From assembly GCF_900129615.1 (NCBI RefSeq), contig NZ_FQWI01000001.1:558001-622000 (forward strand): DNA of 64,000 bases. Direction: 5' to 3'. This stretch comes from Pectobacterium carotovorum. GTDB taxonomy: Bacteria > Pseudomonadota > Gammaproteobacteria > Enterobacterales > Enterobacteriaceae. The notes under the pieces were generated by a model. That model was given only the letters and a program-made list of their open reading frames with translations, made no database searches and was not told where the DNA came from. How positions within the stretch are numbered: the first letter of the stretch is position 1; every line of letters begins with the position of its first letter. This document shows positions 9,622-59,510 of this stretch, one piece after another. Both the position numbers and the translations under genes were made by a program.

Positions 9622-10167
9622 TCAGGATTCTACGGCCTGACGAATCACACTTCGGGCACGAGACAGCCGCGACCGCACCGTACCGATCGGGATCTCCAAC
9701 TGCAACGCGAGATCCTGATAGCTGGCATCGGTATCCAGCAATTGCATCAGCATCTGACGGGTATCTTCAGGCAGTGAGACGATGGCATCCATCGCGCGTT
9801 TCAATGCCCGCTGGCTTTCGGTGATAGCGCCAGGATCGAGATCTATCGCGATATGTTCCAGCATCTCATCGCCCATTTCCTGAGCGCGCTGGCGTGCCTG
9901 CTTGAAATAATTGCGAACCAGGTTGAGGGCAATACCGAATACCCACGTCTCCGGCCGCGATGCTCCCGCAAATTTATCCTGATGTTTGAGCACTTCCAGA
10001 TAGGTCATTTGCTGTAAATCCTCCACGTCGTCACGGTTGCTGACGCGCTTGCGGATAAAGTTATGCAATTTCTTTCCGTGTTGACGAAACACCTGTTCCC
10101 AATCGACAGATAACGCTGGGTAAAGCGAAGGGGTCTGTTCGATGTGTTTCAGGGTAGACATTTCCAT
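9622..10167 (-). CDS. hrpL: HrpL, ECF sigma factor of the hrp regulon
   Basis: 181 aa from MEMSTLKHIE, with GGAGAG 7 nt upstream. The longer open frame would begin inside the promoter. Sigma region 2 (DDVEDLQQMTYLEVLKHQDKF, ETWVFGIALNLVRNYF) and region 4 (LPEDTRQMLMQLLDTDASYQDLALQLEIPIGTVRSRLSRAR) are both clear. HrpL directs RNA polymerase to hrp boxes; three are in this window (1064, 3869, 10403). Its own transcription comes from the -24/-12 element at 10212-10227 under HrpS. Confidence 0.97.
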   Translation of the reverse strand: MEMSTLKHIEQTPSLYPALSVDWEQVFRQHGKKLHNFIRKRVSNRDDVEDLQQMTYLEVLKHQDKFAGASRPETWVFGIALNLVRNYFKQARQRAQEMGDEMLEHIAIDLDPGAITESQRALKRAMDAIVSLPEDTRQMLMQLLDTDASYQDLALQLEIPIGTVRSRLSRARSVIRQAVES

Positions 10168-10211
10168 TTGCTGACTCTCCGTTGTTGTGCCCCATTTGGC
10201 AAAAACGGAAG

Positions 10212-10227
10212 AGCAAGCCTTGTGCCA
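10212..10227 (-). promoter_or_regulatory. hrpL: Sigma-54 (-24/-12) promoter of hrpL
   Basis: Minus strand TGGCACAAGGCTTGCT, against the consensus TGGCACG-N4-TTGCW: only the seventh base differs. The GG and GC doublets are at the correct spacing. The predicted start of transcription near 10201 gives a leader of about 34 nt before the hrpL ATG. Confidence 0.93.
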
Positions 10228-10402
10228 GCCCGGAATAATTTTTATCACACTGATTTTTAATCAGTTATTTTTCACTTTGCTTTTTATCACGCCACTTGTT
10301 GCCAACGTCAGCGGCGTGAAATTGCAAGTTCTTGCAATCAGTAAAACGACATTTAATTCAATCCGCCATCAAATTCGGCCTGCTCCGATGACTTCACGTC
10401 GG

Positions 10403-23726: not shown

Positions 23727-24047
23727 TCAGAGAATAGCGCTTAATCCTTTTCTCTCGATGACCTCCAGTATTCGTAACGCCGCCCCCGTTGGTGCGCTTA
23801 CTCCACGTTCCCATTTCTGAACGCTGTTGGCTGACATATTAATGATGCCAGCCAGTTGGCTTTGACTAATTTTTTCACGCTCACGGATGGCCCGCACTCT
23901 GCTCGCGTCCATACTGGCGCGTGATTCCGTTTTTTGACTTTCCGCCACCAAGCGATTGATAGCGTCAAGGTCGACGTCACTGGCCGTACCTGCGGCATGT
24001 TGACGCTGAATCATGCTCTGTATATTTAATAAGCGATTATCAACCAT
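23727..24047 (-). CDS. XRE-family antitoxin (NadS-like)
   Basis: 106 aa. The C-terminal half is a clear Cro/CI-type helix-turn-helix (VRAIREREKISQSQLAGIINMSANSVQKWERGVSAPTGAALRIL), the form found in antitoxins paired with RelE-type toxins. The N-terminal half is probably the toxin-binding part. Its ATG overlaps the toxin stop by 8 nt, and the toxin comes first, as in higBA-type modules. It probably represses from the palindrome at 24438-24480. Confidence 0.9.
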   Translation of the reverse strand: MVDNRLLNIQSMIQRQHAAGTASDVDLDAINRLVAESQKTESRASMDASRVRAIREREKISQSQLAGIINMSANSVQKWERGVSAPTGAALRILEVIERKGLSAIL

Positions 24048-24429
24048 TTATCACCTCAACAAGCTCTTTGTTTTTAAGGTCTGTTTCGAGATCGGCATCA
24101 GATTTATTTTTAAACACCGTTGACGCAATTTTAAAAGCCGCCAATACATCATCGGGAATTTCTTTCCCACGCGTTGATACCGTGTTTTTCTCCCATCCTT
24201 CAAAGAAAAACACCTTACCTTCTCGATGATAAGCCACTATTGTCCGGGCACCGCCACGTTTACCCAGACTGGTAGCAACGCGCTTCTTATAAACACCGCC
24301 ACCGAGGCCTCCTTTATCTGGATGATCCATAATGTCTGCCGCAATATCACGTAACTGTTGATCGGTTATGCCTGATTTTCTACGAGATTTATTGTAGTGA
24401 CGCTCAACAAAAATCCTTTTTTGTCCCAT
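24040..24429 (-). CDS. RelE/ParE-superfamily toxin
   Basis: 129 aa, basic. The core reads LGGGVYKKRV, GKRGGARTIVAYHREGKVFFFEGWEKN, which matches the RelE-like toxin family paired with NadS-type antitoxins; such toxins are usually translation-dependent mRNA interferases. There is no good Shine-Dalgarno before the ATG: the 18-bp palindrome ends 8 nt upstream, so translation may be inefficient or the mRNA nearly leaderless. The cassette separates the M20 gene from metQ and looks inserted. Confidence 0.88.
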   Translation of the reverse strand: MGQKRIFVERHYNKSRRKSGITDQQLRDIAADIMDHPDKGGLGGGVYKKRVATSLGKRGGARTIVAYHREGKVFFFEGWEKNTVSTRGKEIPDDVLAAFKIASTVFKNKSDADLETDLKNKELVEVING

Positions 24430-45567: not shown

Positions 45568-45934
45568 TAGTGCTCTGGCAGCATCAAGAGATGTGAAAAG
45601 CCGAACAGAAAAAATAAATACGTTGCCCTGAATAAGGGCAACAGATACTGAATTAATATAGTGGGAACAGAGAAAATAATTAGCGCCATAGGGTATAATT
45701 TTTATTTAGGTAATTAATGCGTGACCACTCACAACTCAAAAACATCCTGTTTATTAATGACAGAATATCGCTGGAATTTTTTCCTGATATCTATTTACAC
45801 TCAATACAGTTGCTCGTGCTAACCCTTCCTATTTTAAGTTTCAGGTACGTTATTCAATAATAACGATTTATTCTGTAACTTGAATTAATAAGGGCACATT
45901 CTAATGGACAGAGATCTCATATAAGGGAATACGT
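45568..45934. other. 367-nt gap upstream of the biosynthetic block
   Basis: Contains hairpin repeat B copy 1 (45620-45657), a GGGTATAATTTT -10-like sequence (45691-45702), and the palindrome CGTTATT-CAAT-AATAACG (45848-45865), 70 nt before the SDR ATG. AT-rich; no gene. Confidence 0.55.
45620..45657. repeat. Hairpin repeat, family B copy 1
   Basis: ACGTTGCCC-TGAATAA-GGGCAAC followed by AGATAC and AATTAAT. A close relative is at 51253-51291. It probably also ends the PotA-type gene transcript. Confidence 0.7.
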
Positions 45935-46714
45935 ATGGATACGCCGCACTTCTTTGATCTGTCTGGAAAAACCGCGCTAATCACCGGAGGATCGCGTGGA
46001 TTAGGGCTACAAATTGCTGAAGCACTCGGCGCACAAGGGGCTCACATAATCCTCTCAGCGCGCCACGCCGATGAATTGCAGACCGCGCAGTCACACCTTT
46101 CCTCATTGGGTATTCGTGCCGAATTGATTGCCGCCGACAATGCGCAGGATCGCGATATTGAGCGCCTCGCAGAGGAAGCCATCGCCAAGACGGGCCAGAT
46201 AGATATTCTCGTCAATAATGCCGGTACGGCATTCGGTTCCCCAGCGGAAGACCATGCGATTGCTGACTGGGATCGCGTCATGAATCTGAATATCCGCAGC
46301 CTGTTTTTATTAACGCAGAAAATCGGCAAAGGCAGCATGATCCCTCGCCGCTATGGGAAAGTTATCAACGTGGCGTCGCTTGCTGGCTTACAGGGCAATC
46401 TGCCCGGCTGGCTGGAAGGCATCGCGTACAGCACCAGCAAAGGTGCCGTGGTGAATTTTACCCGTGCATTGGCAGGTGAATGGGGTGAATTTAATATCAC
46501 CGTCAATGCGCTCGCCCCCGGTTTCTTCCCTTCCGCCATGACACAGAATTTGCTAAATCGCCTTGGCGTTGATGCACTGGCGCAAAAATCACCGCTGCGG
46601 CGTATTGGGGACGATGAAGACTTAAAGGGTGCAGCGATCCTATTTGCCTCCGATGCCAGTAAATATATTACGGGTCAAATACTTTCCATTGACGGAGGCA
46701 TGAGCGCTATATAA
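45935..46714 (+). CDS. Short-chain dehydrogenase/reductase at the head of the biosynthetic block
   Basis: 259 aa. TGGSRGLG cofactor site (about 18-25), NNAG motif, Ser in NVASLAGL and YSTSK, C-terminal ITGQILSIDGG. It resembles gluconate 5-dehydrogenase/FabG-type reductases. TAAGGGAATACGT precedes the ATG. The next gene starts 165 nt later, after a repeat end, so it may be a separate transcript, though it lies within the block bounded by the two family B hairpins. Confidence 0.87.
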   Translation: MDTPHFFDLSGKTALITGGSRGLGLQIAEALGAQGAHIILSARHADELQTAQSHLSSLGIRAELIAADNAQDRDIERLAEEAIAKTGQIDILVNNAGTAFGSPAEDHAIADWDRVMNLNIRSLFLLTQKIGKGSMIPRRYGKVINVASLAGLQGNLPGWLEGIAYSTSKGAVVNFTRALAGEWGEFNITVNALAPGFFPSAMTQNLLNRLGVDALAQKSPLRRIGDDEDLKGAAILFASDASKYITGQILSIDGGMSAI

Positions 46715-46807
46715 ACCGCGCCTATATTATTAGCTATCAATTATTCTATCTTTAATCATTCCAAATCAACGAGGCTCATGGAGGAGGCGCGTAATACAGC
46801 CAATTGG

Positions 46808-46834
46808 CATGCAACTTGAAGTATGACGGATATA
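46808..46834. repeat. Solo end of the 25.6-kb MITE-like element
   Basis: The reverse complement agrees with the left end of the element at 25591 and its preceding base pairs in 26 of 27 positions. The remainder of the element is absent. Confidence 0.65.
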
Positions 46835-46879
46835 AATTCATGTACGTTTTCAGTCGAGCTAATTACAGGAGTAATAGCG

Positions 46880-47695
46880 ATGAAAAGTTGCTTTGATGGA
46901 TGGTCACCACAAGTCATTGATAGTGAAGATAAGAAGGCAGTCATTGCGCATATCGAAAAATATCGCTTTGCCGTCGTTACCCGCGAATGGAAATACGATG
47001 ATTCCGACTTCCAAAAAATGTCAGCGCTTTATTCGTTGGGTGATATTTATCAGTCAGCCTTTAACCGTCAGGAACACAAAGAGGGCGTATCGACATCCGG
47101 GGTGAATCAGATTGGCGGGCTCTCACACGGCACGCATATGGTTTTCAACAGTACCTCACACCTTTCTCTTCATACCGATGGCTCTTATATCCCGATAGGA
47201 AGCATAAAAACATCGATCCTCCTTTGTAAACAACATGCAAGCCAAGGGGGTGGAACCGTCCTGTTTGATAGCGTATCCGCGTTTCAGAAGCTCCGGGCTG
47301 AGCACCCTGACCTAGCGAATATTCTGCTTGAAGAACAGATTTTCAGACGCCGTTCAACTGGGACACAATCCGGGACACAGTACGCCCATATCGGTCCAGT
47401 TTTTCGGCCCGATCGGGACGGCGGATATATTGGCGGGTTTACGCTGGATGTGACCGCCGACTGGGACTATTCACGCAATATCAATCCGCGCGTTGTCGAG
47501 GCTGTCGAGTACATGTCGCAGTTGGCCGCTGAAGGTAGCCGCTATCACCTGACATTCCCTCTTTATCGCGGACAGGCCTTGATCATGCGTAACGATAAAA
47601 TCTCTCACGGACGCCATGCCTATACGGACGATCCCGCCTCCCCAAGAACCCTGCTGCGAGGCATGTTCACCCGCGCCCCCACCCTGATCGCATAA
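46880..47695 (+). CDS. TauD/TfdA-family Fe(II)/2-oxoglutarate dioxygenase
   Basis: 271 aa from MKSCFDGWSP (AGGAG 8 nt upstream); the open frame extends 19 codons further without a good site. Iron ligands H98-x-D100 (LHTDGSY) and distal H243 (ISHGRHAY); R256 or R260 probably binds 2-oxoglutarate. The HGR end resembles the gamma-butyrobetaine hydroxylase-like branch more than taurine dioxygenase. It probably hydroxylates an amino acid or amine. The sulfotransferase gene starts 13 nt later. Confidence 0.85.
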   Translation: MKSCFDGWSPQVIDSEDKKAVIAHIEKYRFAVVTREWKYDDSDFQKMSALYSLGDIYQSAFNRQEHKEGVSTSGVNQIGGLSHGTHMVFNSTSHLSLHTDGSYIPIGSIKTSILLCKQHASQGGGTVLFDSVSAFQKLRAEHPDLANILLEEQIFRRRSTGTQSGTQYAHIGPVFRPDRDGGYIGGFTLDVTADWDYSRNINPRVVEAVEYMSQLAAEGSRYHLTFPLYRGQALIMRNDKISHGRHAYTDDPASPRTLLRGMFTRAPTLIA

Positions 47696-47708
47696 TCAAG
47701 GAGAGATC

Positions 47709-48758
47709 ATGACCGATCGTTCAATGACGGAATCCGCGTTAGCGGCGCGCTGGGATGGCTGGCTGACGTGCCCGCAAGAGCACCTTCAAGCCCGGATGCG
47801 GGATGAGTTAACCGAGCTACCGATAAGCGAGAAAACGCGGGCAGCGATGCTGGCCTTCGTTCATGAATACCGTCTCAACGGCGTCAACTGGAGCGCTCAG
47901 GGAATACGCGGAGACGAAGTTCAGGCGCAGCTACAGGATCTTCAACATGACGCGCCGCCTTATTTTGCGTGGTTCTGCGAAAAAATTGCCCTTGCTGAAA
48001 AATACAAATGGGTCGGCGGCAGCGTGGATGCGGATGTTCTGGCGGCACAAACCCGCTATCAGAAATTTGCCATCGTCTCTACGCCCAGAGCGGGTACCCA
48101 CCTGCTCCGCACGCTGTTAGGTTCCCACCCAAATATTGAAATGCACGGCGAAGCCTTCAACCGGTTTGGCCAACATTTGCTGCCCTATTCCGTTAAAGAC
48201 ACCGCTATCGAAACGATCCTACATCGCCACCTGTTCAGACCCTATTTTGAATACGTCGAAGCGGTCGGTTTCGTACTGTTTCGGGATCTTGATACCAACT
48301 GGGGCGATGCGCCGATCTGGCCTGCCTTGCTGGCAATCCCCGATCTGAAGCTGATCCTGCTGGAAAGAAGAAGCCGGCTACAGCAATTCGTGTCGTTGAA
48401 GAAAAGCCTGCGCGACCGCATCTGGTACGTCGGCCAGCATGATAGTCGCCCGATTTCTCACGAAAAAATGGCAGTGTCGGTCGATGAGCTAACGGCGTTC
48501 ATCGATAGCAATCTGGAAAATCAGGCCGCGTTTTATCAAGCTTTTCAGCACCATGACATCCTCACCCTTGACTACGAAGAAGTGATGTCAGCGCCCGATA
48601 TGGCTTCCAGCACGGTGCTGTCTTTCCTGGGGATTTCCGATTCCAGGCTCTGTGCCGGTACAGGAAAAAAAGAGACCCGAACGATTGATTCGATCGTGAG
48701 TAACGTTGACGACATCAGAACCGCGCTGACAGGGACACAATATGAATCCTACCTCTAG
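47709..48758 (+). CDS. Sulfotransferase-family protein with N-terminal helical extension
   Basis: 349 aa. The PAPS-binding loop is clear at residues 121-133 (AIVSTPRAGTHLL), with a second motif around RRSRLQQFVSLKK (a 3'-phosphate-binding-like Arg/Ser stretch). This is the Stf0-like/bacterial sulfotransferase family. About 110 residues stand before the domain with no family I recognise. It should transfer sulfate from PAPS to a hydroxyl, possibly one made by the dioxygenase. Its last 17 nt overlap the aminotransferase gene. GGAGAGATC precedes the ATG. Confidence 0.82.
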   Translation: MTDRSMTESALAARWDGWLTCPQEHLQARMRDELTELPISEKTRAAMLAFVHEYRLNGVNWSAQGIRGDEVQAQLQDLQHDAPPYFAWFCEKIALAEKYKWVGGSVDADVLAAQTRYQKFAIVSTPRAGTHLLRTLLGSHPNIEMHGEAFNRFGQHLLPYSVKDTAIETILHRHLFRPYFEYVEAVGFVLFRDLDTNWGDAPIWPALLAIPDLKLILLERRSRLQQFVSLKKSLRDRIWYVGQHDSRPISHEKMAVSVDELTAFIDSNLENQAAFYQAFQHHDILTLDYEEVMSAPDMASSTVLSFLGISDSRLCAGTGKKETRTIDSIVSNVDDIRTALTGTQYESYL

Positions 48759-49986
48759 CCCATACTGGCCACCTTATACGGCTCTCACTGAAAAAGACGA
48801 GCGCCCGATTATTCACCGTGGCGAAGGTGTTTATCTTTATGATGAACGCGGGCAGCGCTACTTTGACGGGATGTCGGGCTGTTATAACCATTGCCTAGGG
48901 CACTCCCACCCTGAATTCATTGCCGCCCTGCAACAACAATTATCCACGCTGATTCATGCCTGCAATATCTATTCAAATACCCAACTCCCCGGCGAACTGG
49001 CCGAAAAACTCGCCACTAAGCTACTCGGTACAGGCCTTCGTAAAACGTTCATCGTCGGGAGCGGCAGCGAAGGCGTTGAAAGCGCACTAAAAATGGCCTG
49101 GCAATATCAGGTCAACCGTTCCCGTCCAGCGAGAACGAAAATCGTGGCGATTAACGGCGCGTACCACGGCTGTACGCTCGGTGCGATGATGGCGACCAGG
49201 CGCCCTTTTATCAACGAGGGCATTTTACCGTCTCTGCTCGACAGCAATACGATCACGATGCCCCCACCTGAACACCTCAACGATATTCGCGGCTGGGAAA
49301 CGCTGTTAGAAGAGCAGGAAGCGACCATCGCCGCCGTCATTATTGAACCGATCATGGCAATGGAAGGCACCCGACAGCTACCTGAGGGCTTCCTGCAACA
49401 GCTTTCGCAGTTAACAAAAAAACACGACATTCCGCTGATCTGTGACGAAGTTTACTGCGGCGTTGGCCGTGCGGGGACGTTCTGTGAATCGGTCTCACAA
49501 GGTGCACAGCCTGACATTGTCATTTTCAGCAAGTGTCTGGGTGGCGGCGTTCCCATCACCGCCGTGCTTGCCACGGAGGCGATTACCGACAGCTTTAAAG
49601 GGCAAATGCCGCCGTTTTTCCGCCACGGCCATACGCAATCCGGCAACCTGCTGGGCTGCCGCGCGGCGCTGTTTGTCATGGATTATCTGGATGCGCATCA
49701 CCTCTACGATGAGGTCACGGCAAAAGGAAGAACGATCCTCCAGCTCGCCAAACAGCATTTCCCTCAAACCGAGGGGCTGATCAGCCTGCAAGGTAAAGGG
49801 CTGATGCTATCGATGACGTTTGAGTCCCTCGAACAGTGTGGCCGTGCGCAGGCGGCGATACGCCAACATGGCGTCATCGTTGGCGCAGCGGGTCCGTACT
49901 TAAAACTGGCACCCGCTTTCACGATTTCAGCCAACGAAACAGAGGAACTGATTCAACGTATGACTACCGCACTGGAAAGCCTCTGA
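48742..49986 (+). CDS. Class III PLP-dependent aminotransferase (biosynthetic block)
   Basis: 414 aa. VGSGSEGVESALKMAWQY, NGAYHGCTLGAMMAT, PLICDEVYCGVGRAGTF, PLP lysine in FSKCLGGGVPITA. It is of the omega/diaminobutyrate type. It differs clearly from the two other class III enzymes in the window (32632 and gabT). The ATG lies inside the 3' end of the sulfotransferase gene in another frame, a sign of coupled translation. The substrate is not known. Confidence 0.88.
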   Translation: MNPTSSPYWPPYTALTEKDERPIIHRGEGVYLYDERGQRYFDGMSGCYNHCLGHSHPEFIAALQQQLSTLIHACNIYSNTQLPGELAEKLATKLLGTGLRKTFIVGSGSEGVESALKMAWQYQVNRSRPARTKIVAINGAYHGCTLGAMMATRRPFINEGILPSLLDSNTITMPPPEHLNDIRGWETLLEEQEATIAAVIIEPIMAMEGTRQLPEGFLQQLSQLTKKHDIPLICDEVYCGVGRAGTFCESVSQGAQPDIVIFSKCLGGGVPITAVLATEAITDSFKGQMPPFFRHGHTQSGNLLGCRAALFVMDYLDAHHLYDEVTAKGRTILQLAKQHFPQTEGLISLQGKGLMLSMTFESLEQCGRAQAAIRQHGVIVGAAGPYLKLAPAFTISANETEELIQRMTTALESL

Positions 49987-50040
49987 TGGGCGTTAACCGC
50001 CACTATCCGTCAGGTGTGATTAATAACAGGGAGTGAAAAA

Positions 50041-50694
50041 ATGTCCGACTATTTTGATCTTGAACGCATCATCCACGGCAAACGGCATGAAACCCCTTTC
50101 CAGTGGGGAGAATTAACCCAGATATGGCGTAACAGCACTATCGCCTCGACGCTTGCTCACGAGTTCCCGACCGACGGGTTTAACTATCGTGAACGTAACG
50201 GCGGTTACTTTTATCGTCGTACCCTTATTCCTTTAGCCTCCGGCAAGGTGAGCGACACCACGACGCTGTCCGACGCCTGGCTGGGAATGTGCAACGACTT
50301 GGTTTCTGACGACTTTACTGCCGCCCTGTCCGCCTTCTGCGGTGCCGACCTTTCCGAATTCAAAATGGAAGCCGTGGCCTTTCGCGGCGGGCGAGATACA
50401 CACTACCTTCCCCATGTCGACGCATCCCTAAAACGCGGATTCCGCCTGATTATCTATTTTAACGCCGAATGGGAAGAAAGCTGGGGCGGTGCCTTTCAGA
50501 TCCTCAACCCAGAGAATCATGCTGACGTCTGCCATTCCGTTCTCCCGATTATGGGCAACGCCAGCGTCATCATCCGCAACGGGTTTTATGAAACCTGGCA
50601 TGCGGTCATGCCGCTAACCGGCGTTTCCGTCAAAACACGTAATGCGCTGAATATCACCTATTACGAACCCGGCACGACGAGTACAGCGCAGTGA
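50041..50694 (+). CDS. 2-oxoglutarate/Fe(II) oxygenase, prolyl-4-hydroxylase-like
   Basis: 217 aa. H125-x-D127 (LPHVDAS), distal H187 (YETWHAVM) and R200 (VKTRNALNITYY), the order found in the P4H-type double-stranded beta helix. It belongs to another branch than the TauD-type enzyme at 46880, so the operon has two oxygenases. GGGAGTGAAAAA precedes the ATG, 54 nt after the aminotransferase. It overlaps the kinase gene by 4 nt. Confidence 0.85.
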   Translation: MSDYFDLERIIHGKRHETPFQWGELTQIWRNSTIASTLAHEFPTDGFNYRERNGGYFYRRTLIPLASGKVSDTTTLSDAWLGMCNDLVSDDFTAALSAFCGADLSEFKMEAVAFRGGRDTHYLPHVDASLKRGFRLIIYFNAEWEESWGGAFQILNPENHADVCHSVLPIMGNASVIIRNGFYETWHAVMPLTGVSVKTRNALNITYYEPGTTSTAQ

Positions 50695-51239
50695 AGAAGC
50701 TTATTTTTCTCTACGGGCCGCCTGCGGTGGGGAAACTCACTATCAGTCGCCTGCTGGCAGAGAAAATGGGTGCAAGGCTATTTCATAATCATCTGACGTA
50801 TGATTTAGCGATGGCGGTGCTCCCGCCGGATAGTACATTTAGCACGCTCCGGCGCTTCGCCTGTCAGCTAAGGCTCTATGCCATCACGTTACTTTTTGCA
50901 GAGGATGAGCGCGATTTGATCACGACTTTCTGCTATGAGGGAAGCAAAGACGACGGGTACATTGAGGCGATAAAGACACTGTGCGCGGAACATGGCGTGA
51001 CGCCATTTTTCGTTCAACTCTGTAGCGACGAAGTGCACCTCTTAAATCGCGTAGAAAACGCTGATCGACATCAGTTCGGTAAGGTGAATACACAAGATAA
51101 GCTCAAAGAAATTCTGAGGAATTGCGACTACACCGACACGATCGATGCAGCTCATCATCGTTCACTGCACACCTCTGCGCTGGCGCCTCACGAAGCCGCA
51201 GAACAGTTACTCGACTGGTTTTATTCATCTTCATATTGA
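50691..51239 (+). CDS. P-loop kinase-like protein
   Basis: 182 aa starting with GTG, which overlaps the preceding stop (GTGA). The Walker A loop GPPAVGK (residues 9-15) opens the protein, as in shikimate/adenylate kinase-like nucleotide-binding folds; FHNHLTYDLA and RVENADRHQFGK may form the lid and substrate sites. It is probably a small-molecule kinase. In the context it could activate or protect the product of the pathway; resistance by phosphorylation is another option. The function is not recognised. Confidence 0.75.
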   Translation: MKKLIFLYGPPAVGKLTISRLLAEKMGARLFHNHLTYDLAMAVLPPDSTFSTLRRFACQLRLYAITLLFAEDERDLITTFCYEGSKDDGYIEAIKTLCAEHGVTPFFVQLCSDEVHLLNRVENADRHQFGKVNTQDKLKEILRNCDYTDTIDAAHHRSLHTSALAPHEAAEQLLDWFYSSSY

Positions 51240-51252
51240 CGTAACAGAAAGC

Positions 51253-51291
51253 ACGTTGCCCCTGAACAGGGGCAACGGATACAAAATTAAT
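51253..51291. repeat. Hairpin repeat, family B copy 2 (likely bidirectional terminator)
   Basis: Perfect 10-bp stem GTTGCCCCTG/CAGGGGCAAC with a 2-nt loop, then GGATAC and AATTAAT as in copy 1 at 45620. It lies between the kinase stop and the convergent GlsB-like gene. Confidence 0.75.
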
Positions 51292-51843: not shown

Positions 51844-52926
51844 TTACACCTGAATATCATAAAAGTTTTTTTCAAAATCACCAACGTTTGACCACACATT
51901 CACTAATGGGCTAAGGTTTTTCTTTTCCGAGTAATAATTGATGTAAACTAGAAACATAAAAAGTGTGTATTTCACATATGCTCTGTTTGGTCGTATTCTT
52001 TTATTCAGTAACAATACATTTTTAATGGCATTCTTCGACACGGACTTCTTTATTATAATCTGAAGCTCACCAATATATTTCAAATCAAGAAGTTTCAAAA
52101 TTTCAACACCTTCTTGAATGTGAAAAAATTCAATTTCATTAGTGCTGATTTCATTAACATCAAGTCCTGAATCCTTAGCAAGTTTTTTATATTTACAATA
52201 TTCTGATTCTAGATCGCTGTCTGAATCAATGAGAGCGGTCAACGACATTTCGTTAATCAATATATCGCCCGCCCTACTGTTTATAACTTCGCCTCTAACT
52301 GTTTCATCATATTCGTATATTTTCCTTTTTATATTTAAAAATTCCTTATCGACCAACTCTAGGTTACCAGATAATATAGAAAATAAACGTCTTATTTCGT
52401 CTGGCATAGAATTTTTAGATTTGTACCCTAATTTATGCTCTATTTCAGCCCAGCAGTGTTGCAATATTGTTCTTATTTGTATTTCGAATTTATAATCGCT
52501 AAAATCCGAATACTCAGGTAAAGATGATCTTTCTTCTTTCAAAGAAACAATATAGTGAAGTGACATATATCCGAATCTATCTGGCTCTATAGCTTTTCTC
52601 TTATCTATAGAGTTTTCTTCGTCTATTATAAATTCTTTTCTTATTAAAATTTCAATATCATCAATATCAGACGAATAAAAGGTTATGATTCTAAATCCAA
52701 GAATGTCAGTGATATCTTTCAGATTTTTATATTTTTTCTTCTTTTGTATTTTATTTTCTAAGCTAATGGAAGTCTTAACTCTATGGGATATAGAGTGTGT
52801 ATCAATATTATTTTTCCTAACCAAAGTATTTAACAATGCATTTATTGACACCCCCATTTCTTTTATCTTTTGTTCATTGGATAAAAAATCTTCAACAATG
52901 TTTTCATCTGAAGAAAAATCACTCAT
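51844..52926 (-). CDS. Orphan RelA/SpoT-domain protein (putative alarmone synthetase or toxin)
   Basis: 360 aa, strongly AT-rich coding (many AAA, ATT, TTA codons) unlike every neighbour. The N-terminal 170 residues form a RelA/SpoT nucleotidyltransferase domain: RVKTSISLENKIQKKKK (49-65), DITDILGFRIITFY (71-84), DRFGYMSLHYIVSL (116-129), FEIQIRTILQHCWAEIEHKLGYK (147-169). No HD hydrolase, TGS or ACT domain is present. The C-terminal 190 residues are helical and not recognised. Such single-domain proteins are either (p)ppGpp synthetases or toxins that pyrophosphorylate nucleotides or tRNA, often in defence. No antitoxin gene is adjacent. Confidence 0.85.
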   Translation of the reverse strand: MSDFSSDENIVEDFLSNEQKIKEMGVSINALLNTLVRKNNIDTHSISHRVKTSISLENKIQKKKKYKNLKDITDILGFRIITFYSSDIDDIEILIRKEFIIDEENSIDKRKAIEPDRFGYMSLHYIVSLKEERSSLPEYSDFSDYKFEIQIRTILQHCWAEIEHKLGYKSKNSMPDEIRRLFSILSGNLELVDKEFLNIKRKIYEYDETVRGEVINSRAGDILINEMSLTALIDSDSDLESEYCKYKKLAKDSGLDVNEISTNEIEFFHIQEGVEILKLLDLKYIGELQIIIKKSVSKNAIKNVLLLNKRIRPNRAYVKYTLFMFLVYINYYSEKKNLSPLVNVWSNVGDFEKNFYDIQV

Positions 52927-53096: not shown

Positions 53097-53720
53097 CTAA
53101 TCCTTCGCATACAAATACACCGACGCCCGTGATACGCCGAGGTGTTGCGCAATGGTTTCCATGGATTTTTTGACTTCCAGCAGGCCGTTGTCTTTCAGTT
53201 CCTGAAGCAGGATTTTTCTGTCCTGCGCTTTTAACGCCCGTGGCGTGGTAGCAAGCCGGGCGGCGAAGTGATCGATGTGTTGTCTGATCGCCGCCGCGCC
53301 GTTTGGTTCCAGATGCTCGGTCACCGAGTCCGACGCAAGCTGGGTGAACTGCGCCAGCGCATTTTGCATGCCGCGAAACAGCGTCATATCGACGTTCAGG
53401 CACAGCGCGGCGACATATTCACCTTCTGCATTTTTGATGCCGACCGAGGTGCTTTTTACCGGACGCCCGTCGGCAAACTGGTTGGCGTAGTTCGCCAGAA
53501 TGTTAGGAAATTCGGGCGAGGCAATGCGGGCAAGGCCCAGTTCCGTTGCAGGCGCGCCCACCTCCCTGCCGGAGAGGTTATTGTGAATGGAAAGTATCGC
53601 GTGGTCCGGGTTTTTCAGATCGTGCACAACCACTTCACAGAATGGCGCGAACGTTTCACTCAACCCTTTTGCGATGGCATCCAACTGCGTCAGCAGCAGA
53701 CCTTCTCCAGATGCAGACAT
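53097..53720 (-). CDS. YheO/DauR-family transcriptional regulator
   Basis: 207 aa from the ATG MSASGEGLLL, with GGAG nearby; a GTG four codons up is an alternative. N-terminal YheO-like PAS domain (about 15-125, FCEVVVHDLKNPDHAILSIHNNLSGREVGAP) and C-terminal helix-turn-helix (about 160-207, ETIAQHLGVSRASVYLYAKD). This is the family of the D-arginine regulator DauR. It diverges from the 3-hydroxyaspartate-type catabolic operon, and the palindrome 53782-53798 lies between, so it probably controls that operon. Confidence 0.9.
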   Translation of the reverse strand: MSASGEGLLLTQLDAIAKGLSETFAPFCEVVVHDLKNPDHAILSIHNNLSGREVGAPATELGLARIASPEFPNILANYANQFADGRPVKSTSVGIKNAEGEYVAALCLNVDMTLFRGMQNALAQFTQLASDSVTEHLEPNGAAAIRQHIDHFAARLATTPRALKAQDRKILLQELKDNGLLEVKKSMETIAQHLGVSRASVYLYAKD

Positions 53721-54027
53721 ATTCCTCTCCACTGTCCATATTCAATACCCATGCCTGCACAAGCGCGTTTTCTGGCGCTGAGTGTACTGTAAGTACACCT
53801 GATTTAGTACCACACGCGGTGTCAGCGGCGGTCACGCCTTGCTCCGTGACACGTACTCGTTCCGTTTTTTTTCAGCAGCATACGACGCACCTCACGTAGG
53901 TTGAGAATCTAAAGATAAATCACATTAGACAATTTATCTAATTTTATATATTTTGTTTATCAGGCATTCGACAGCATCGGGCCAATGGCCACGATATTCA
54001 TAATCACTAACATCGGATTATCCAACT
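53721..54027. other. Divergent promoter region, YheO-type regulator / dehydratase operon
   Basis: Palindrome GTGTACT-GTA-AGTACAC at 53782-53798, then AT-rich TATCTAATTTTATATATTTTG (split here as an AT block, 53932-53956) as likely promoter for the plus operon. No gene. Confidence 0.6.
53782..53798. promoter_or_regulatory. Palindromic operator candidate for the YheO-type regulator
   Basis: GTGTACTGTAAGTACAC: 7-bp perfect arms with a 3-nt centre, 62 nt before the regulator start. Confidence 0.6.
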
Positions 54028-55002
54028 ATGAGCGACTTACGCCTCCCAACCTACGACGATGTGGTAGCCGCAGCGGAACGTATTGATGGCTATGCCAATA
54101 AAACGCTAGTGATGACATCGCGCACGGTCAATAACGCATTCGGTGCAGAGCTTTTCTTTAAGTGTGAAAACTTGCAACGCATGGGCGCATTCAAGTTTCG
54201 CGGTGCGATGAACGCACTGTTGCAGTTCTCGGACGAGCAGAAAGCCGCTGGCGTAGTCACCTTTTCTTCTGGTAACCATGCGCAGGCGATTGCGCTGGCT
54301 GCCAAATTACTCGGCATTCCAGCAACGATTGTCATGCCACACGATGCCCCGGCGGCAAAGGTCGCAGCCACGCGCGGTTACGGCGGAAACGTGGTGAAAT
54401 ACAACCGATATACCGAAGATCGTGAGCAGATCGGCAACGATCTGGCGAAAAAGCATGGCCTGACGCTCATTCCCCCTTACGACCACCCGCACGTTATTGC
54501 TGGGCAAGGCACCGCCGCGAAAGAGTTGCTGGAAGAAACGGGTGAATTGGACGCCCTGTTCGTCTGTCTGGGCGGCGGCGGATTGCTGTCAGGTTGTGCG
54601 CTTGCCACCCGTCAGCTATCCCCACACTGCAAAATTTATGGCGTCGAACCTCTCGCGGGCAACGATGGGCAGCAATCTTTCCGCAGCGGCAACATTGTGC
54701 ATATCGATACGCCCAAAACCATCGCCGACGGCGCACAGACTCAGCATTTGGGTAACTATACCTTCCCTCTGATTCGTCAGAATGTCGACGATATCCTGAC
54801 CGTGACGGATGACGACCTGATTGACGCGATGCGGTTTTACGCCGAACGCATGAAGATCGTCGTTGAGCCAACGGGGTGCCTCAGCTTTGCGGCGGCACGC
54901 AATCTCAGGGAATCGCTACGCGGTAAACGCATCGGCATTATTATCAGCGGCGGGAACGTCGATATCAGCCGCTACGGCGCATTTCTGACCGGCAATGCCT
55001 AA
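54028..55002 (+). CDS. Fold-type II PLP dehydratase, threo-3-hydroxyaspartate ammonia-lyase/serine racemase type
   Basis: 324 aa. PLP lysine in MGAFKFRGAMNA, phosphate loop GGGGLLSG, SSGNHAQAIALAA. The size lacks the C-terminal regulatory domain of biosynthetic threonine deaminase. The closest functional relatives are L-threo-3-hydroxyaspartate ammonia-lyase and eukaryotic-type serine racemase. It is followed after 10 nt by an ornithine cyclodeaminase-family gene and then a D-3-hydroxyaspartate dehydratase-like gene, which supports 3-hydroxyaspartate catabolism. Threonine/serine deaminase is the alternative. Confidence 0.87.
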   Translation: MSDLRLPTYDDVVAAAERIDGYANKTLVMTSRTVNNAFGAELFFKCENLQRMGAFKFRGAMNALLQFSDEQKAAGVVTFSSGNHAQAIALAAKLLGIPATIVMPHDAPAAKVAATRGYGGNVVKYNRYTEDREQIGNDLAKKHGLTLIPPYDHPHVIAGQGTAAKELLEETGELDALFVCLGGGGLLSGCALATRQLSPHCKIYGVEPLAGNDGQQSFRSGNIVHIDTPKTIADGAQTQHLGNYTFPLIRQNVDDILTVTDDDLIDAMRFYAERMKIVVEPTGCLSFAAARNLRESLRGKRIGIIISGGNVDISRYGAFLTGNA

Positions 55003-55012
55003 GGAAAAAACG

Positions 55013-55954
55013 ATGATCTTTATTTCTGAAGCGGAATCAGCGGAACTCATCAACCATGAGCTGGCTTATGACGCCGTTCGTGAAGCCCTGCTCGCCGCCA
55101 GCAAACCGGAAGCACGCAGTTTTCCGGTGGTACACGGGCAAGGTTCCGATCCGGTCAACACCTTCAGCATCAAGGCTTCAGCAACCGGTGAACTCGCGGG
55201 ACTAAAAGTCGGTTCGTTCTGGCCGGGAAACCCCGCTAACGGGCTACCTCGCCATAATTCCCTCATTCTGCTGTTCGATCAGCAAATCGGCAAAATCGCT
55301 GTCGCGATTGAAGCCGGAAAAGTGAACGCCTTTCGTACCGCCGCCGCCAACGCCGTTGCAGCCGATTTACTGGCAAGACCTGATTCCTCAGTCCTGGCCG
55401 TGTTCGGAACCGGTCATCAGGCCCGCTATGAGTGCGCCGCGCTGGCAAGAATACGACCCATTCGTACCGTGCTAATTGTCGGACGCGATAGCAGTAAATC
55501 CGCAGAGATGGCGCAAGAATTCAAGGCAGCCGGACTGGATGCGCAAGTCAGCAATGCCGAAAGCGCGTGTCGCGCAGCAAATATCATCGTGACCGCAACG
55601 CCCTCACGCGCGCCGCTGTTTAACGCCGAATGGGTTAACGCCGGAACGCACGTTGTCAGCATGGGATCGGACGCCGTCGGCAAGCAGGAATTGCCGCCCG
55701 AGCTGTTTACCACAGGCCGCCTGTTTTGCGATCTGCCTTCCCAGTCCCGAATGATTGGTGACTTCCAGCATGCGCCAGCCCATGTGACGCTGACCGCCAT
55801 TGGCGATGTGATTAGCGCAAACGCAGCAGGACGACAAACGCCGGACGATATCACCGTGTTTGACAGCTCTGGCTTGTCCATTCAGGACTTATATATTGGC
55901 CAGCGTATTCTTGCCGCCTGGCAACAGGCTAAACGAAATGAAGGTGCACAATGA
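55013..55954 (+). CDS. Ornithine cyclodeaminase/mu-crystallin-family reductase (iminosuccinate-reductase-like)
   Basis: 313 aa from MIFISEAESA, with AAGGAAAAAACG before the ATG; an earlier ATG (54995) overlaps the upstream gene. Rossmann motif VLAVFGTGHQARYE, substrate region NAFRTAAANAVAADLLARPD and KASATGELAGLKVGSFWPGNP. The family includes ornithine cyclodeaminase, ketimine reductase and the iminosuccinate reductase BhcD of the beta-hydroxyaspartate cycle. Placement between two hydroxyaspartate dehydratase-like genes favours iminosuccinate or another ketimine as substrate. It overlaps the next gene by 4 nt. Confidence 0.83.
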   Translation: MIFISEAESAELINHELAYDAVREALLAASKPEARSFPVVHGQGSDPVNTFSIKASATGELAGLKVGSFWPGNPANGLPRHNSLILLFDQQIGKIAVAIEAGKVNAFRTAAANAVAADLLARPDSSVLAVFGTGHQARYECAALARIRPIRTVLIVGRDSSKSAEMAQEFKAAGLDAQVSNAESACRAANIIVTATPSRAPLFNAEWVNAGTHVVSMGSDAVGKQELPPELFTTGRLFCDLPSQSRMIGDFQHAPAHVTLTAIGDVISANAAGRQTPDDITVFDSSGLSIQDLYIGQRILAAWQQAKRNEGAQ

Positions 55955-57093
55955 ACAAGAGTGAATGGCTTAACGCGCTGGAAACGCCCTTTTTGCTGAT
56001 TGATGAGTTCCGCTTTCAACGCAATATCGACAGGCTTTATCAGCGTACGGAAAAATTAGGCAGCCAGATTCGACCGCACCTCAAAACGCTACGCTCGATT
56101 GAAGCTGGTCGCTATCTACTCAAAGACGCCGCTTCACCCGCGACAGTTTCGACGCTGGCAGAAGCAGAGGCCTTTGCCAACGCGGGTTACACCAACCTGC
56201 TCTACGCCGTGGGGATCGCCCCGCACAAGCTGCCACGCATCGCCAACCTCATCCACAAAGGTGTGAATATTCATATTCTTCTCGATAGCGCAGAGCAGGC
56301 ACGCGCGGTGACCGATTTCGCACTCGCCAATAGCGTGACGTTTTCGGTGTTTATCGAGATTGACTGTGACGGACATCGCGGCGGTATTCCGCCGGAAAGC
56401 GACGCGTTGCTTGAATTGGCAAAGCAGATCGACGGCAACGGTGCAACGCTTACCGGCCTGCTGGCGCATGCGGGAGAATCCTACGCCTGCCGCACGGACG
56501 AGGCGATCAGAGCCGCCGCGCGTGCCGAGTGCAAAGCCATCAATACCGCCGGACAGCGTGTACGGGCACTGGGAATTGCCTGCCCCGTACTCAGCGTCGG
56601 TGCCACGCCAACGGCGCACTTTGCTGAGGATTTAACCGGTGTTACCGAAGTCAGAGCGGGCGTGTTCACCACGTTCGATCTGGTGATGAAAAATGTCGGT
56701 GTCTGTTCGCTGGATGATATCGCGCTGTCGGTCGTCAGCACCGTGATTGGGCATAATCGCGAAAAAGGCTGGGTGTTTATCGATGCGGGTTGGATGGCGC
56801 TCTCCCGCGATCGCGGCACCGCATCTCAGGCAAAAGATTACGGTTACGGGCTGGTTTGCGACCTGGACGGCCGCCCTTACGACGATCTCTGCGTAACAAT
56901 CACCAATCAGGAACACGGCATTATCGCACTACCCGCCGACAGTGGGCTTTCTGTGGATGATTTCCCCGTCGGCACCCGACTGCGGATATTGCCTAACCAC
57001 GCCTGTGCAACAGCTGCAATGCATCAGCACTATCAGGTGCTGAAATCACACACGCATGAACAAGAAACCTGGCAGCGTATTACCGGCTGGTGA
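55951..57093 (+). CDS. Fold-type III PLP enzyme, D-threo-3-hydroxyaspartate dehydratase/D-threonine aldolase type
   Basis: 380 aa. The N-terminal alanine-racemase-like barrel has the PLP lysine in RPHLKTLRSIEAG. The C-terminal domain carries the metal site NQEHGIIALP and LPNHACATAAMHQHY (His and Cys ligands), as in D-serine dehydratase, D-threonine aldolase and D-threo-3-hydroxyaspartate dehydratase. It overlaps the preceding gene by ATGA. The pairing with an L-type dehydratase suggests that both stereoisomers of one hydroxyamino acid are used. Confidence 0.87.
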   Translation: MNKSEWLNALETPFLLIDEFRFQRNIDRLYQRTEKLGSQIRPHLKTLRSIEAGRYLLKDAASPATVSTLAEAEAFANAGYTNLLYAVGIAPHKLPRIANLIHKGVNIHILLDSAEQARAVTDFALANSVTFSVFIEIDCDGHRGGIPPESDALLELAKQIDGNGATLTGLLAHAGESYACRTDEAIRAAARAECKAINTAGQRVRALGIACPVLSVGATPTAHFAEDLTGVTEVRAGVFTTFDLVMKNVGVCSLDDIALSVVSTVIGHNREKGWVFIDAGWMALSRDRGTASQAKDYGYGLVCDLDGRPYDDLCVTITNQEHGIIALPADSGLSVDDFPVGTRLRILPNHACATAAMHQHYQVLKSHTHEQETWQRITGW

Positions 57094-59327: not shown

Positions 59328-59391
59328 TGTTTTAAATTGATGACTGATCTATTTGTAAAACGAAAACGGGGTAATGGAATAGAAGAGTAAA

Positions 59392-59448
59392 GCGTCCGCG
59401 CCAGGGATGGCGCGGCTCGAGCTTACAGGGAGGTACTTGCAGCGTCTT
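59392..59448. repeat. Palindromic intergenic repeat, family C
   Basis: It starts with the 8-bp perfect hairpin CCGCGCCA-GGGA-TGGCGCGG (59396-59415), then GAGCTTACAGGGAGGTACTTG. The form is typical of dispersed repeats in soft-rot enterobacteria. 63 nt beyond the narI stop. Confidence 0.6.
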
Positions 59449-59510
59449 TACGATCTATCCATTATCCCCGCTTCACGTACTTCATCAGCAAGCATTATTT
59501 TCTATCATAT

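What the first reader, a model, noticed from the sequence alone, without database searches (positions are those of the whole stretch)
45935..51239. Unrecognised operon joining two different 2OG oxygenases, a sulfotransferase, an aminotransferase and a P-loop kinase
Seen: five consecutive plus-strand genes (46880-51239) with gaps of 13 and 54 nt and overlaps of 17 and 4 nt, preceded by an SDR. Iron ligands of both oxygenases (H98/D100/H243; H125/D127/H187), the PAPS loop (AIVSTPRAGTHLL), the PLP lysine and the Walker A loop are all intact. Family knowledge: these enzymes hydroxylate, sulfate, transaminate and phosphorylate small molecules. Inference: the operon makes, or tailors, a sulfated hydroxy-amino compound; the kinase may activate it or give self-protection. 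There are no NRPS, PKS or ligase genes, so genome-mining tools would probably miss it. I know of no described pathway with this set.
Basis: partly seen in the sequence, partly recalled or inferred. Interest (0 to 1): 0.85.

Follow-up and report, generated by a model that had tools for sequence, protein, structure and literature searches.

The report
Plant-pathogen operon making unknown small molecule
A block of five or six enzyme genes in a soft-rot bacterium is a real, inherited unit found in several unrelated plant pathogens and probably makes a small molecule used on plants, but a sister copy in another plant pathogen has been in print since 2010-2014 and its product is still unknown.

Summary
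In detail: coordinates, gaps, overlaps and catalytic residues check out. The window is Pectobacterium (sulfotransferase 98% identical to P. versatile KC01), and its first 21 kb hold hrp/hrc type III secretion genes. The block TauD oxygenase - sulfotransferase - class III aminotransferase - 2OG oxygenase - P-loop kinase has the same order in 16 of 16 genome loci (Pectobacterium, Erwinia, Xanthomonas, Paracidovorax) and in two of two intact P. syringae-group plasmids opened. The SDR belongs to it only in Pectobacterium/Erwinia. It is patchy (9 of 25 Pectobacterium), under purifying selection, apparently transferred between Xanthomonas and Paracidovorax (p-AU 0.007), and cleanly absent from non-carriers. 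It is not undescribed: Mucyn et al. 2014 (PMC3879358) reported the P. syringae copy (PSPPH_A0110-A0106) as a HrpL-driven virulence operon of unknown product and named Pectobacterium as having similar genes. New here, as far as I searched: the six-gene form with SDR, the island borders, and no hrp box or avrD beside it. Best reading: synthesis of a host-acting small metabolite. Whether sulfate stays on the product is open.

The parts
45604..45657 (.). Left copy of a ~50 bp imperfect direct repeat (terminator-like hairpin) at the island border
   Evidence: Alignment score 55 vs maximum 44 in 300 shuffles; one such hairpin in each of three non-carrier sites printed. In other carriers the pair scores 47 (L029) and only 24 (L017)
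45671..45934 (+). Upstream region conserved with the operon; no hrp box
   Evidence: Aligned in 6 Pectobacterium carriers, window included; best hrp-box match 8 of 11, no better than shuffles
45935..46714 (+). SDR oxidoreductase (gluconate 5-dehydrogenase subfamily PRK08213); sixth gene of the unit in Pectobacterium and Erwinia
   Evidence: NCBIfam NF006070 6.5e-118, above its cut-off; found in 7 of 7 Pectobacterium/Erwinia loci (in L029 only at 67%), in none of 9 Xanthomonas/Paracidovorax and 2 Pseudomonas loci at E 1e-3
46880..47695 (+). TauD-type Fe(II)/2-oxoglutarate oxygenase
   Evidence: Pfam TauD 3e-26; H98/D100/H243, invariant in 18
47709..48758 (+). PAPS sulfotransferase with a ~110-residue helical N-terminal part
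   Evidence: Pfam Sulfotransfer_3 8.7e-10; model pLDDT 72, best folds Teg12, Stf0, StaL at E 2e-3 to 5e-3; NodH-named chain 9vki 5.6e-7 by sequence
48742..49986 (+). Class III PLP aminotransferase, BioA/ArgD-like but below each curated cut-off in the 25 rows shown
   Evidence: Pfam Aminotran_3 2.5e-82; TIGR00508 266 bits vs cut-off 405
50041..50694 (+). Second Fe(II)/2OG oxygenase, prolyl-4-hydroxylase-like
   Evidence: Pfam 2OG-FeII_Oxy_3 3.6e-9; PDB 9ei6 2e-8; deletion of the P. syringae orthologue PSPPH_A0107 reduced growth in bean (PMC3879358)
50691..51239 (+). P-loop kinase of the shikimate/gluconate/NMP/APS-kinase and antibiotic-phosphotransferase fold
51243..51291 (.). Right copy of the direct repeat

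Best explanation
A horizontally moving biosynthetic operon of plant-pathogenic bacteria that makes a small, amino-group-bearing, oxygenated metabolite acting on the plant. Proposed steps, all inferred from family chemistry and of unknown order: the SDR (where present) oxidises an alcohol of a small precursor to a carbonyl; the aminotransferase turns the carbonyl into an amine; the two 2OG oxygenases hydroxylate unactivated carbons; the sulfotransferase puts sulfate from PAPS on a hydroxyl; the kinase phosphorylates the compound inside the cell, as activation or self-protection. Shown: conserved unit, intact active sites, purifying selection, signs of transfer between genera, orthology to a P. 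syringae operon with a measured virulence effect. Inferred: substrate, order, product, role in Pectobacterium.
For: Same five genes in the same order in 16 of 16 loci from four genera (one, L029, broken into pieces) and in two of two intact P. syringae-group plasmids opened (14 of 18 plasmid records hit hold at least 80% of the sulfotransferase, all Pseudomonas). The four genera are plant-pathogen genera (recalled). All 18 dN/dS values 0.03-0.19. In each of five gene trees Paracidovorax pairs with X. albilineans/GPE39, and the joint tree rejects one Xanthomonas clade, so the genes travel together. Empty site in 4 of 4 non-carrier stretches fetched, of 16 non-carriers. P. syringae orthologues: HrpL-dependent expression, and clean deletion of the second-oxygenase gene lowers growth in bean (PMC3879358). 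Another small-molecule operon of the HrpL regulon, hsvABC, makes phevamine A, which suppresses plant immune responses (passage in PMC8303149).
Against: No product or substrate is known. No hrp box lies upstream in the window (best 8 of 11 positions, reached by 76 of 200 shuffles), so the HrpL control of P. syringae is not shared as far as sequence tells. Within Pectobacterium 8 of 9 carriers but also 11 of 16 non-carriers hold hrcV, so carriage does not clearly follow the type III system; one carrier (P. fontis, G019) has no hrcV match. No exporter is in the unit. One plasmid carrier is listed as a soil isolate (Pseudomonas sp. KBS0707). The bean defect in P. syringae was slight, and the authors note a conflict with an earlier competitive assay of avrD. 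The P. syringae sulfotransferase gene was among genes down-regulated at 18 C in NPS3121 (PMC3639832, passage).
Confidence: 0.6

Rival explanations
1. Sulfate is a temporary leaving group: a 2OG oxygenase sets a hydroxyl, the sulfotransferase activates it, and elimination or ring closure by a neighbouring amine gives a strained or cyclic, sulfate-free product.
For: Such use of sulfation is described for some aziridine products (recalled; reviews PMC10764440 and PMC11880133, which hold the words aziridine and sulfate elimination, were seen only as listings). An aminotransferase beside a sulfotransferase and hydroxylases fits a beta- or gamma-amino sulfate ester.
Against: No dedicated cyclase is in the unit; nothing here shows the fate of the sulfate.
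Confidence: 0.22
2. The operon detoxifies or remodels a plant defence compound (hydroxylation, sulfation and phosphorylation of an imported molecule) instead of making a new one.
For: Plant-pathogen distribution and modifying-enzyme chemistry fit; no scaffold-building enzyme is present.
Against: No uptake gene is among the five conserved genes; an aminotransferase and two different 2OG oxygenases are more than simple detoxification needs; the P. syringae copy is co-regulated with type III effectors (PMC3879358).
Confidence: 0.13
3. The sulfotransferase decorates a macromolecule (LPS or glycolipid, NodH-like) and the other genes supply the sugar or fatty-acyl part.
For: The only solved-structure sequence match at E 0.1 is a chain named LPS sulfotransferase NodH (5.6e-7).
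Against: The match covers the common domain only; no glycosyltransferase, acyltransferase or ACP family was found in the unit.
Confidence: 0.04
4. Unrelated genes that happen to be neighbours.
For: None.
Against: Order conserved in 16 of 16 loci and across beta- and gammaproteobacteria.
Confidence: 0.01

Closest known systems
avrD-linked HrpL operon of Pseudomonas syringae pv. phaseolicola 1448A (PSPPH_A0112-A0106; PMC3879358)
   Same: Last five genes are orthologous and in the same order (51-63% identity)
   Different: P. syringae copy follows avrD and a histidine phosphatase, with a hrp box 123 bp before avrD; the window has an SDR instead, and no avrD, phosphatase or hrp box beside the operon
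hsvABC / phevamine A operon (P. syringae, Erwinia; passage in PMC8303149)
   Same: Small-molecule operon tied to the hrp regulon, acting on plant immunity
   Different: Other enzymes (recalled); product known
TauD-type oxygenases of Streptomyces clusters
   Same: 31-35% identity; annotated neighbours include a clavaminate-synthase-like gene (L042) and an NRPS and aminotransferase (L043)
   Different: No sulfotransferase or small kinase is listed among the annotated neighbours (several are hypothetical)
Tunicamycin-resistance protein 2vli and chloramphenicol phosphotransferase 1qhs
   Different: Near-tied with adenylate, gluconate and APS kinases; no functional match

Membership tests
Five-gene cassette orthologous to PSPPH_A0110-A0106 | TauD - sulfotransferase - class III aminotransferase - 2OG oxygenase - P-loop kinase, same strand and order | tested here: met
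Five-gene cassette orthologous to PSPPH_A0110-A0106 | Near full-length orthology with active-site motifs kept | tested here: met
   51-63% identity to 1448A, motifs invariant in 18
avrD-linked HrpL operon (P. syringae form) | avrD and histidine phosphatase genes directly upstream | tested here: not met
   tblastn of both finds only L030 and L031 among the window and 18 loci at E 1e-3; the rest of the own genome was not searched for avrD
avrD-linked HrpL operon (P. syringae form) | hrp box driving transcription | tested here: not met
   No pattern match in window 15-64 kb, best upstream score within shuffles; box present in L030/L031. A sequence test only; expression not testable
avrD-linked HrpL operon (P. 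syringae form) | Contribution to virulence | not testable with these tools
   Within the five genes, the sections read report a mutant only for PSPPH_A0107 (PMC3879358)
PAPS sulfotransferase superfamily | 5'-phosphosulfate loop and sulfotransferase domain | tested here: met
   Pfam PF13469 39.6 bits vs cut-off 27; STPR.GTH invariant; fold match only weak
APS kinase (CysC) | Sequence family membership | tested here: inconclusive
   Fold near-tie only; no NCBIfam hit
Characterised biosynthetic pathway with known product | Published product for the same enzyme set | tested here: inconclusive
   None seen in searches; library holds open-licence papers only

The most novel reading that the evidence does not exclude
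The operon makes a new class of small non-NRPS, non-PKS metabolite, sulfated or built through a sulfate leaving group, that several unrelated plant pathogens have each acquired and wired to their own regulation (HrpL in P. syringae, something else in Pectobacterium) to act on plants.
Probability: 0.4. Interest if true: 0.8.

Novelty: new member of a known kind. Interest (0 to 1): 0.52.

Why it matters
If the reading holds, five genera of crop pathogens share one unsolved small-molecule trait outside the reach of NRPS/PKS-based genome mining. The cassette is short, has a clean empty site in sister species and a virulence precedent in P. syringae, so the product could be found by comparing a deletion mutant with wild type.

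Tried and rejected
Chance neighbours: rejected by conserved order and selection.

HrpL control in the window: sought by exact pattern in the own genome (25 hits vs 21 for the reversed control, so no genome-wide excess; the 4 hits inside the window lie at 1.06-14.5 kb, in the type III cluster) and by score around the operon; not found. PIP boxes upstream in Xanthomonas/Paracidovorax: 2 of 9 loci (L024, L028, close relatives; 12 and 13 of 2000 shuffles had one), too few to claim.

SDR remnant in Xanthomonas: collinear degraded matches directly upstream in L021 (residues 155-253, E 0.064 in a set of 11 short stretches) and L025 (166-250, E 1.2), and a 9-residue tail in L022 (E 5); the reversed protein gave best E 0.21 and 0.37, so the control comes close. 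Suggestive, not shown.

Direct repeats at the border: clear in the window, but only 47 in L029 and 24 (shuffle level) in L017. The left neighbour also differs among carriers: contiguous with the potA side in L017 and L029, about 6.5 kb apart in L015, no potA-side match next to it in L014 and L016; the right side matches in all five.

Kinase as APS kinase: fold search cannot separate it from other P-loop kinases. The sulfotransferase fold search gave no match under E 1e-3. A profile search of 369 genomes of the class gave, besides the window, four distant sulfotransferases (E 1e-16 to 1e-23); in two of them tblastn found the sulfotransferase again and no other cassette gene in the stretch fetched, in the other two nothing. 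TauD relatives on Jeotgalibacillus and Vibrio plasmids gave no informative neighbours. The reported Ralstonia copy was not recovered (plasmid search 22; 399 family and 399 order genomes around Paracidovorax, unnamed). Rfam scan of the window: one hit, outside the operon.

My first look into PMC2856684 used bare tags and found nothing; with full locus tags it lists all five genes.
Full report
What is there. The window is part of a 4.76 Mb Pectobacterium genome (G000, contig 15, 558001-622000); the sulfotransferase is 98% identical to that of P. versatile KC01. The finding's coordinates, gaps, overlaps and catalytic residues are correct. Pfam and NCBIfam place the proteins as SDR, TauD oxygenase, sulfotransferase (Pfam only), class III aminotransferase and 2OG-FeII_Oxy_3 oxygenase; the last protein has no hit in either. 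An AlphaFold2 model of it (pLDDT 89, 16 sequences) has the P-loop kinase fold shared by shikimate, gluconate, nucleoside-monophosphate and APS kinases and by two antibiotic-modifying or resistance proteins, with near-tied scores. The sulfotransferase model is poor in its catalytic half (mean pLDDT 72, pTM 0.55); its weak best matches are sulfotransferases.

It is a unit. A scan of genome contigs (84,980 species) for close relatives of the sulfotransferase gave 16 loci: five Pectobacterium, two Erwinia, seven Xanthomonas, two Paracidovorax. All 16 hold all five genes in the same order; in one, L029, the sulfotransferase match falls into three overlapping pieces and neighbours are degraded, possibly assembly errors. 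The scan needs exact peptides of the window protein, so it finds close relatives best and the spread is a lower bound. Plasmid records add the P. syringae group: 15 Pseudomonas records match the sulfotransferase (14 cover at least 80%), 14 the TauD, 15 the second oxygenase, 15 the kinase. In two opened the order is AvrD - histidine phosphatase - TauD - sulfotransferase - aminotransferase - 2OG oxygenase - kinase; in a third, with a partial sulfotransferase match, insertion sequences interrupt that end. The SDR is in 7 of 7 Pectobacterium/Erwinia loci and in none of the 9 Xanthomonas/Paracidovorax or 2 Pseudomonas loci as a recognisable gene. In two Xanthomonas loci degraded SDR-like sequence may stand where the gene would be, but a reversed-protein control comes close; an ancestral six-gene form is possible, not shown.

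It is maintained and mobile. Against three Pectobacterium relatives, dN/dS is 0.03-0.19 for all six genes. Carriage is patchy, query genomes included: 9 of 25 Pectobacterium genomes, 3 of 20 in the genus group of X. albilineans, 3 of 37 in that of E. mallotivora, 2 of 399 in the family sample around Paracidovorax citrulli, 2 of 398 in a phylum sample, both Pectobacterium and one the window's own. On a tree of the five proteins together (18 rows), Paracidovorax groups with X. albilineans and strain GPE39; holding Xanthomonas together is rejected (p-AU 0.007; a quick tree had been seen before). All five single-gene trees show the same pairing, with support 0.79-0.96. In Pectobacterium the block is an island: the potA-like gene and the yeaQ-like gene side follow each other with 35-61 bp between the matched parts in 4 of 4 non-carrier stretches fetched, out of 16 non-carriers. 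The window island lies between two imperfect copies of a ~50 bp terminator-like sequence (score 55; maximum of 300 shuffles 44), of which three empty sites printed have one. The repeat pair is weaker in carrier L029 (47) and not seen in L017 (24). Gain by insertion or loss by recombination between the copies would look alike. The left neighbour varies among the five named carriers; the right neighbour does not.

Place in the genome. Window bases 1-21 kb hold hrp/hrc type III secretion genes (SctJ, SctV, SctN, SctU above their NCBIfam cut-offs); the operon starts 24.9 kb beyond SctU. In 7 of 9 carriers the sulfotransferase lies on the same contig as hrcV, 33-56 kb away (my subtraction); in G005 they are on different contigs and G019 (P. 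fontis, by matching coordinates) has no hrcV at E 1e-200. Non-carriers with the empty site also have hrcV nearby (G018, G020, G023), so nearness alone says little. hrcV is in 8 of 9 carriers and 11 of 16 non-carriers.

Regulation. Upstream of avrD, both P. syringae-group plasmids opened have a perfect hrp box at -123 (L030, L031). The window has none near the operon: its four pattern hits lie at 1.06-14.5 kb in the type III cluster, and the best score upstream of the SDR is 8 of 11, reached or passed by 76 of 200 shuffles. A 264-bp upstream region is nonetheless conserved in the six Pectobacterium carriers aligned. So the cassette seems to keep its chemistry while changing its control.

Prior work. 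A 2010 comparison of P. syringae pv. aesculi (PMC2856684; passage) lists PSPPH_A0110 (hypothetical), A0109 (sulphotransferase), A0108 (aminotransferase), A0107 ('SanC oxygenase') and A0106 (hypothetical) in a presence/absence table. Mucyn et al. 2014 (PMC3879358; sections 19 and 25 and passages read) found PSPPH_A0112-A0106 by RNA-seq in the HrpL regulon, showed by RT-PCR of two junctions that the stretch is transcribed with avrD, showed that deletion of PSPPH_A0107 reduces growth on bean, proposed a secondary metabolite, and wrote that A0110-A0107 and to some extent A0106 resemble genes in operons of Xanthomonas, Acidovorax, Pectobacterium and Ralstonia. They left A0110 and A0106 hypothetical; the plasmid record now names them TauD/TfdA dioxygenase and AAA ATPase, which the work here supports and refines to a P-loop kinase fold. 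PMC3639832 lists A0109 as down-regulated at 18 C (passage). Passages of PMC5357869, PMC8303149 and PMC6317194 add no product; in PMC3071791 the one sulfotransferase is RaxST. Ten text searches showed no product in the open-licence library.

How it most likely works. The enzyme set transaminates, hydroxylates twice, sulfates and phosphorylates, with an SDR to supply or reduce a carbonyl in the enterobacterial form. No scaffold-building enzyme is present, so the precursor should be a small primary metabolite or amino acid. I take synthesis of a small host-acting metabolite as most likely (0.6); sulfate as a leaving group (0.22) and modification of a plant compound (0.13) follow. The phosphatase beside the P. 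syringae cassette and the kinase inside it could form a mask-and-release pair, but this is speculation.

Verdict. A specialist would find the six-gene form, the shared island and the missing hrp box useful, not startling.

Noticed in passing
window 51844-52926 (-): Stand-alone RelA/SpoT-domain protein (Pfam 2e-21; PADLOC PDC-S33 2.5e-18, a candidate defence family). The stretch 51.65-53.09 kb has no printed match (over 100 bp) in the five Pectobacterium carrier loci compared and differs in length in three non-carriers, so it looks like a second variable spot beside the operon.
   Followed up: partly
window 1-21025: hrp/hrc type III secretion cluster with an ECF-type sigma factor at 9622-10248 (-), presumably HrpL.
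   Followed up: partly
window 53097-57093: YheO-like regulator, PALP-family enzyme, ornithine-cyclodeaminase-family and D-serine-dehydratase-domain genes: looks like a hydroxy-amino-acid (for example 3-hydroxyaspartate) utilisation cluster (substrate recalled).
   Followed up: no
window 23727-24429 (-): RelE-family toxin with HTH antitoxin beyond the type III cluster.
   Followed up: no
window 59389-59495 (-): Rfam match to Ysr224 sRNA, 80.1 bits.
   Followed up: no
G019 / L017 (P. fontis): Carries the operon next to the same potA-side neighbour but has no hrcV match, so the operon can persist without this type III gene.
   Followed up: partly
L030 7270-7914: Histidine-phosphatase-family protein between AvrD and the cassette in P. 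syringae plasmids; a possible partner of the cassette's kinase.
   Followed up: no
L029 (Pectobacterium sp. PL152): SDR and sulfotransferase matches fall into pieces or low identity, suggesting frameshifts, perhaps sequencing errors. Not mended.
   Followed up: no
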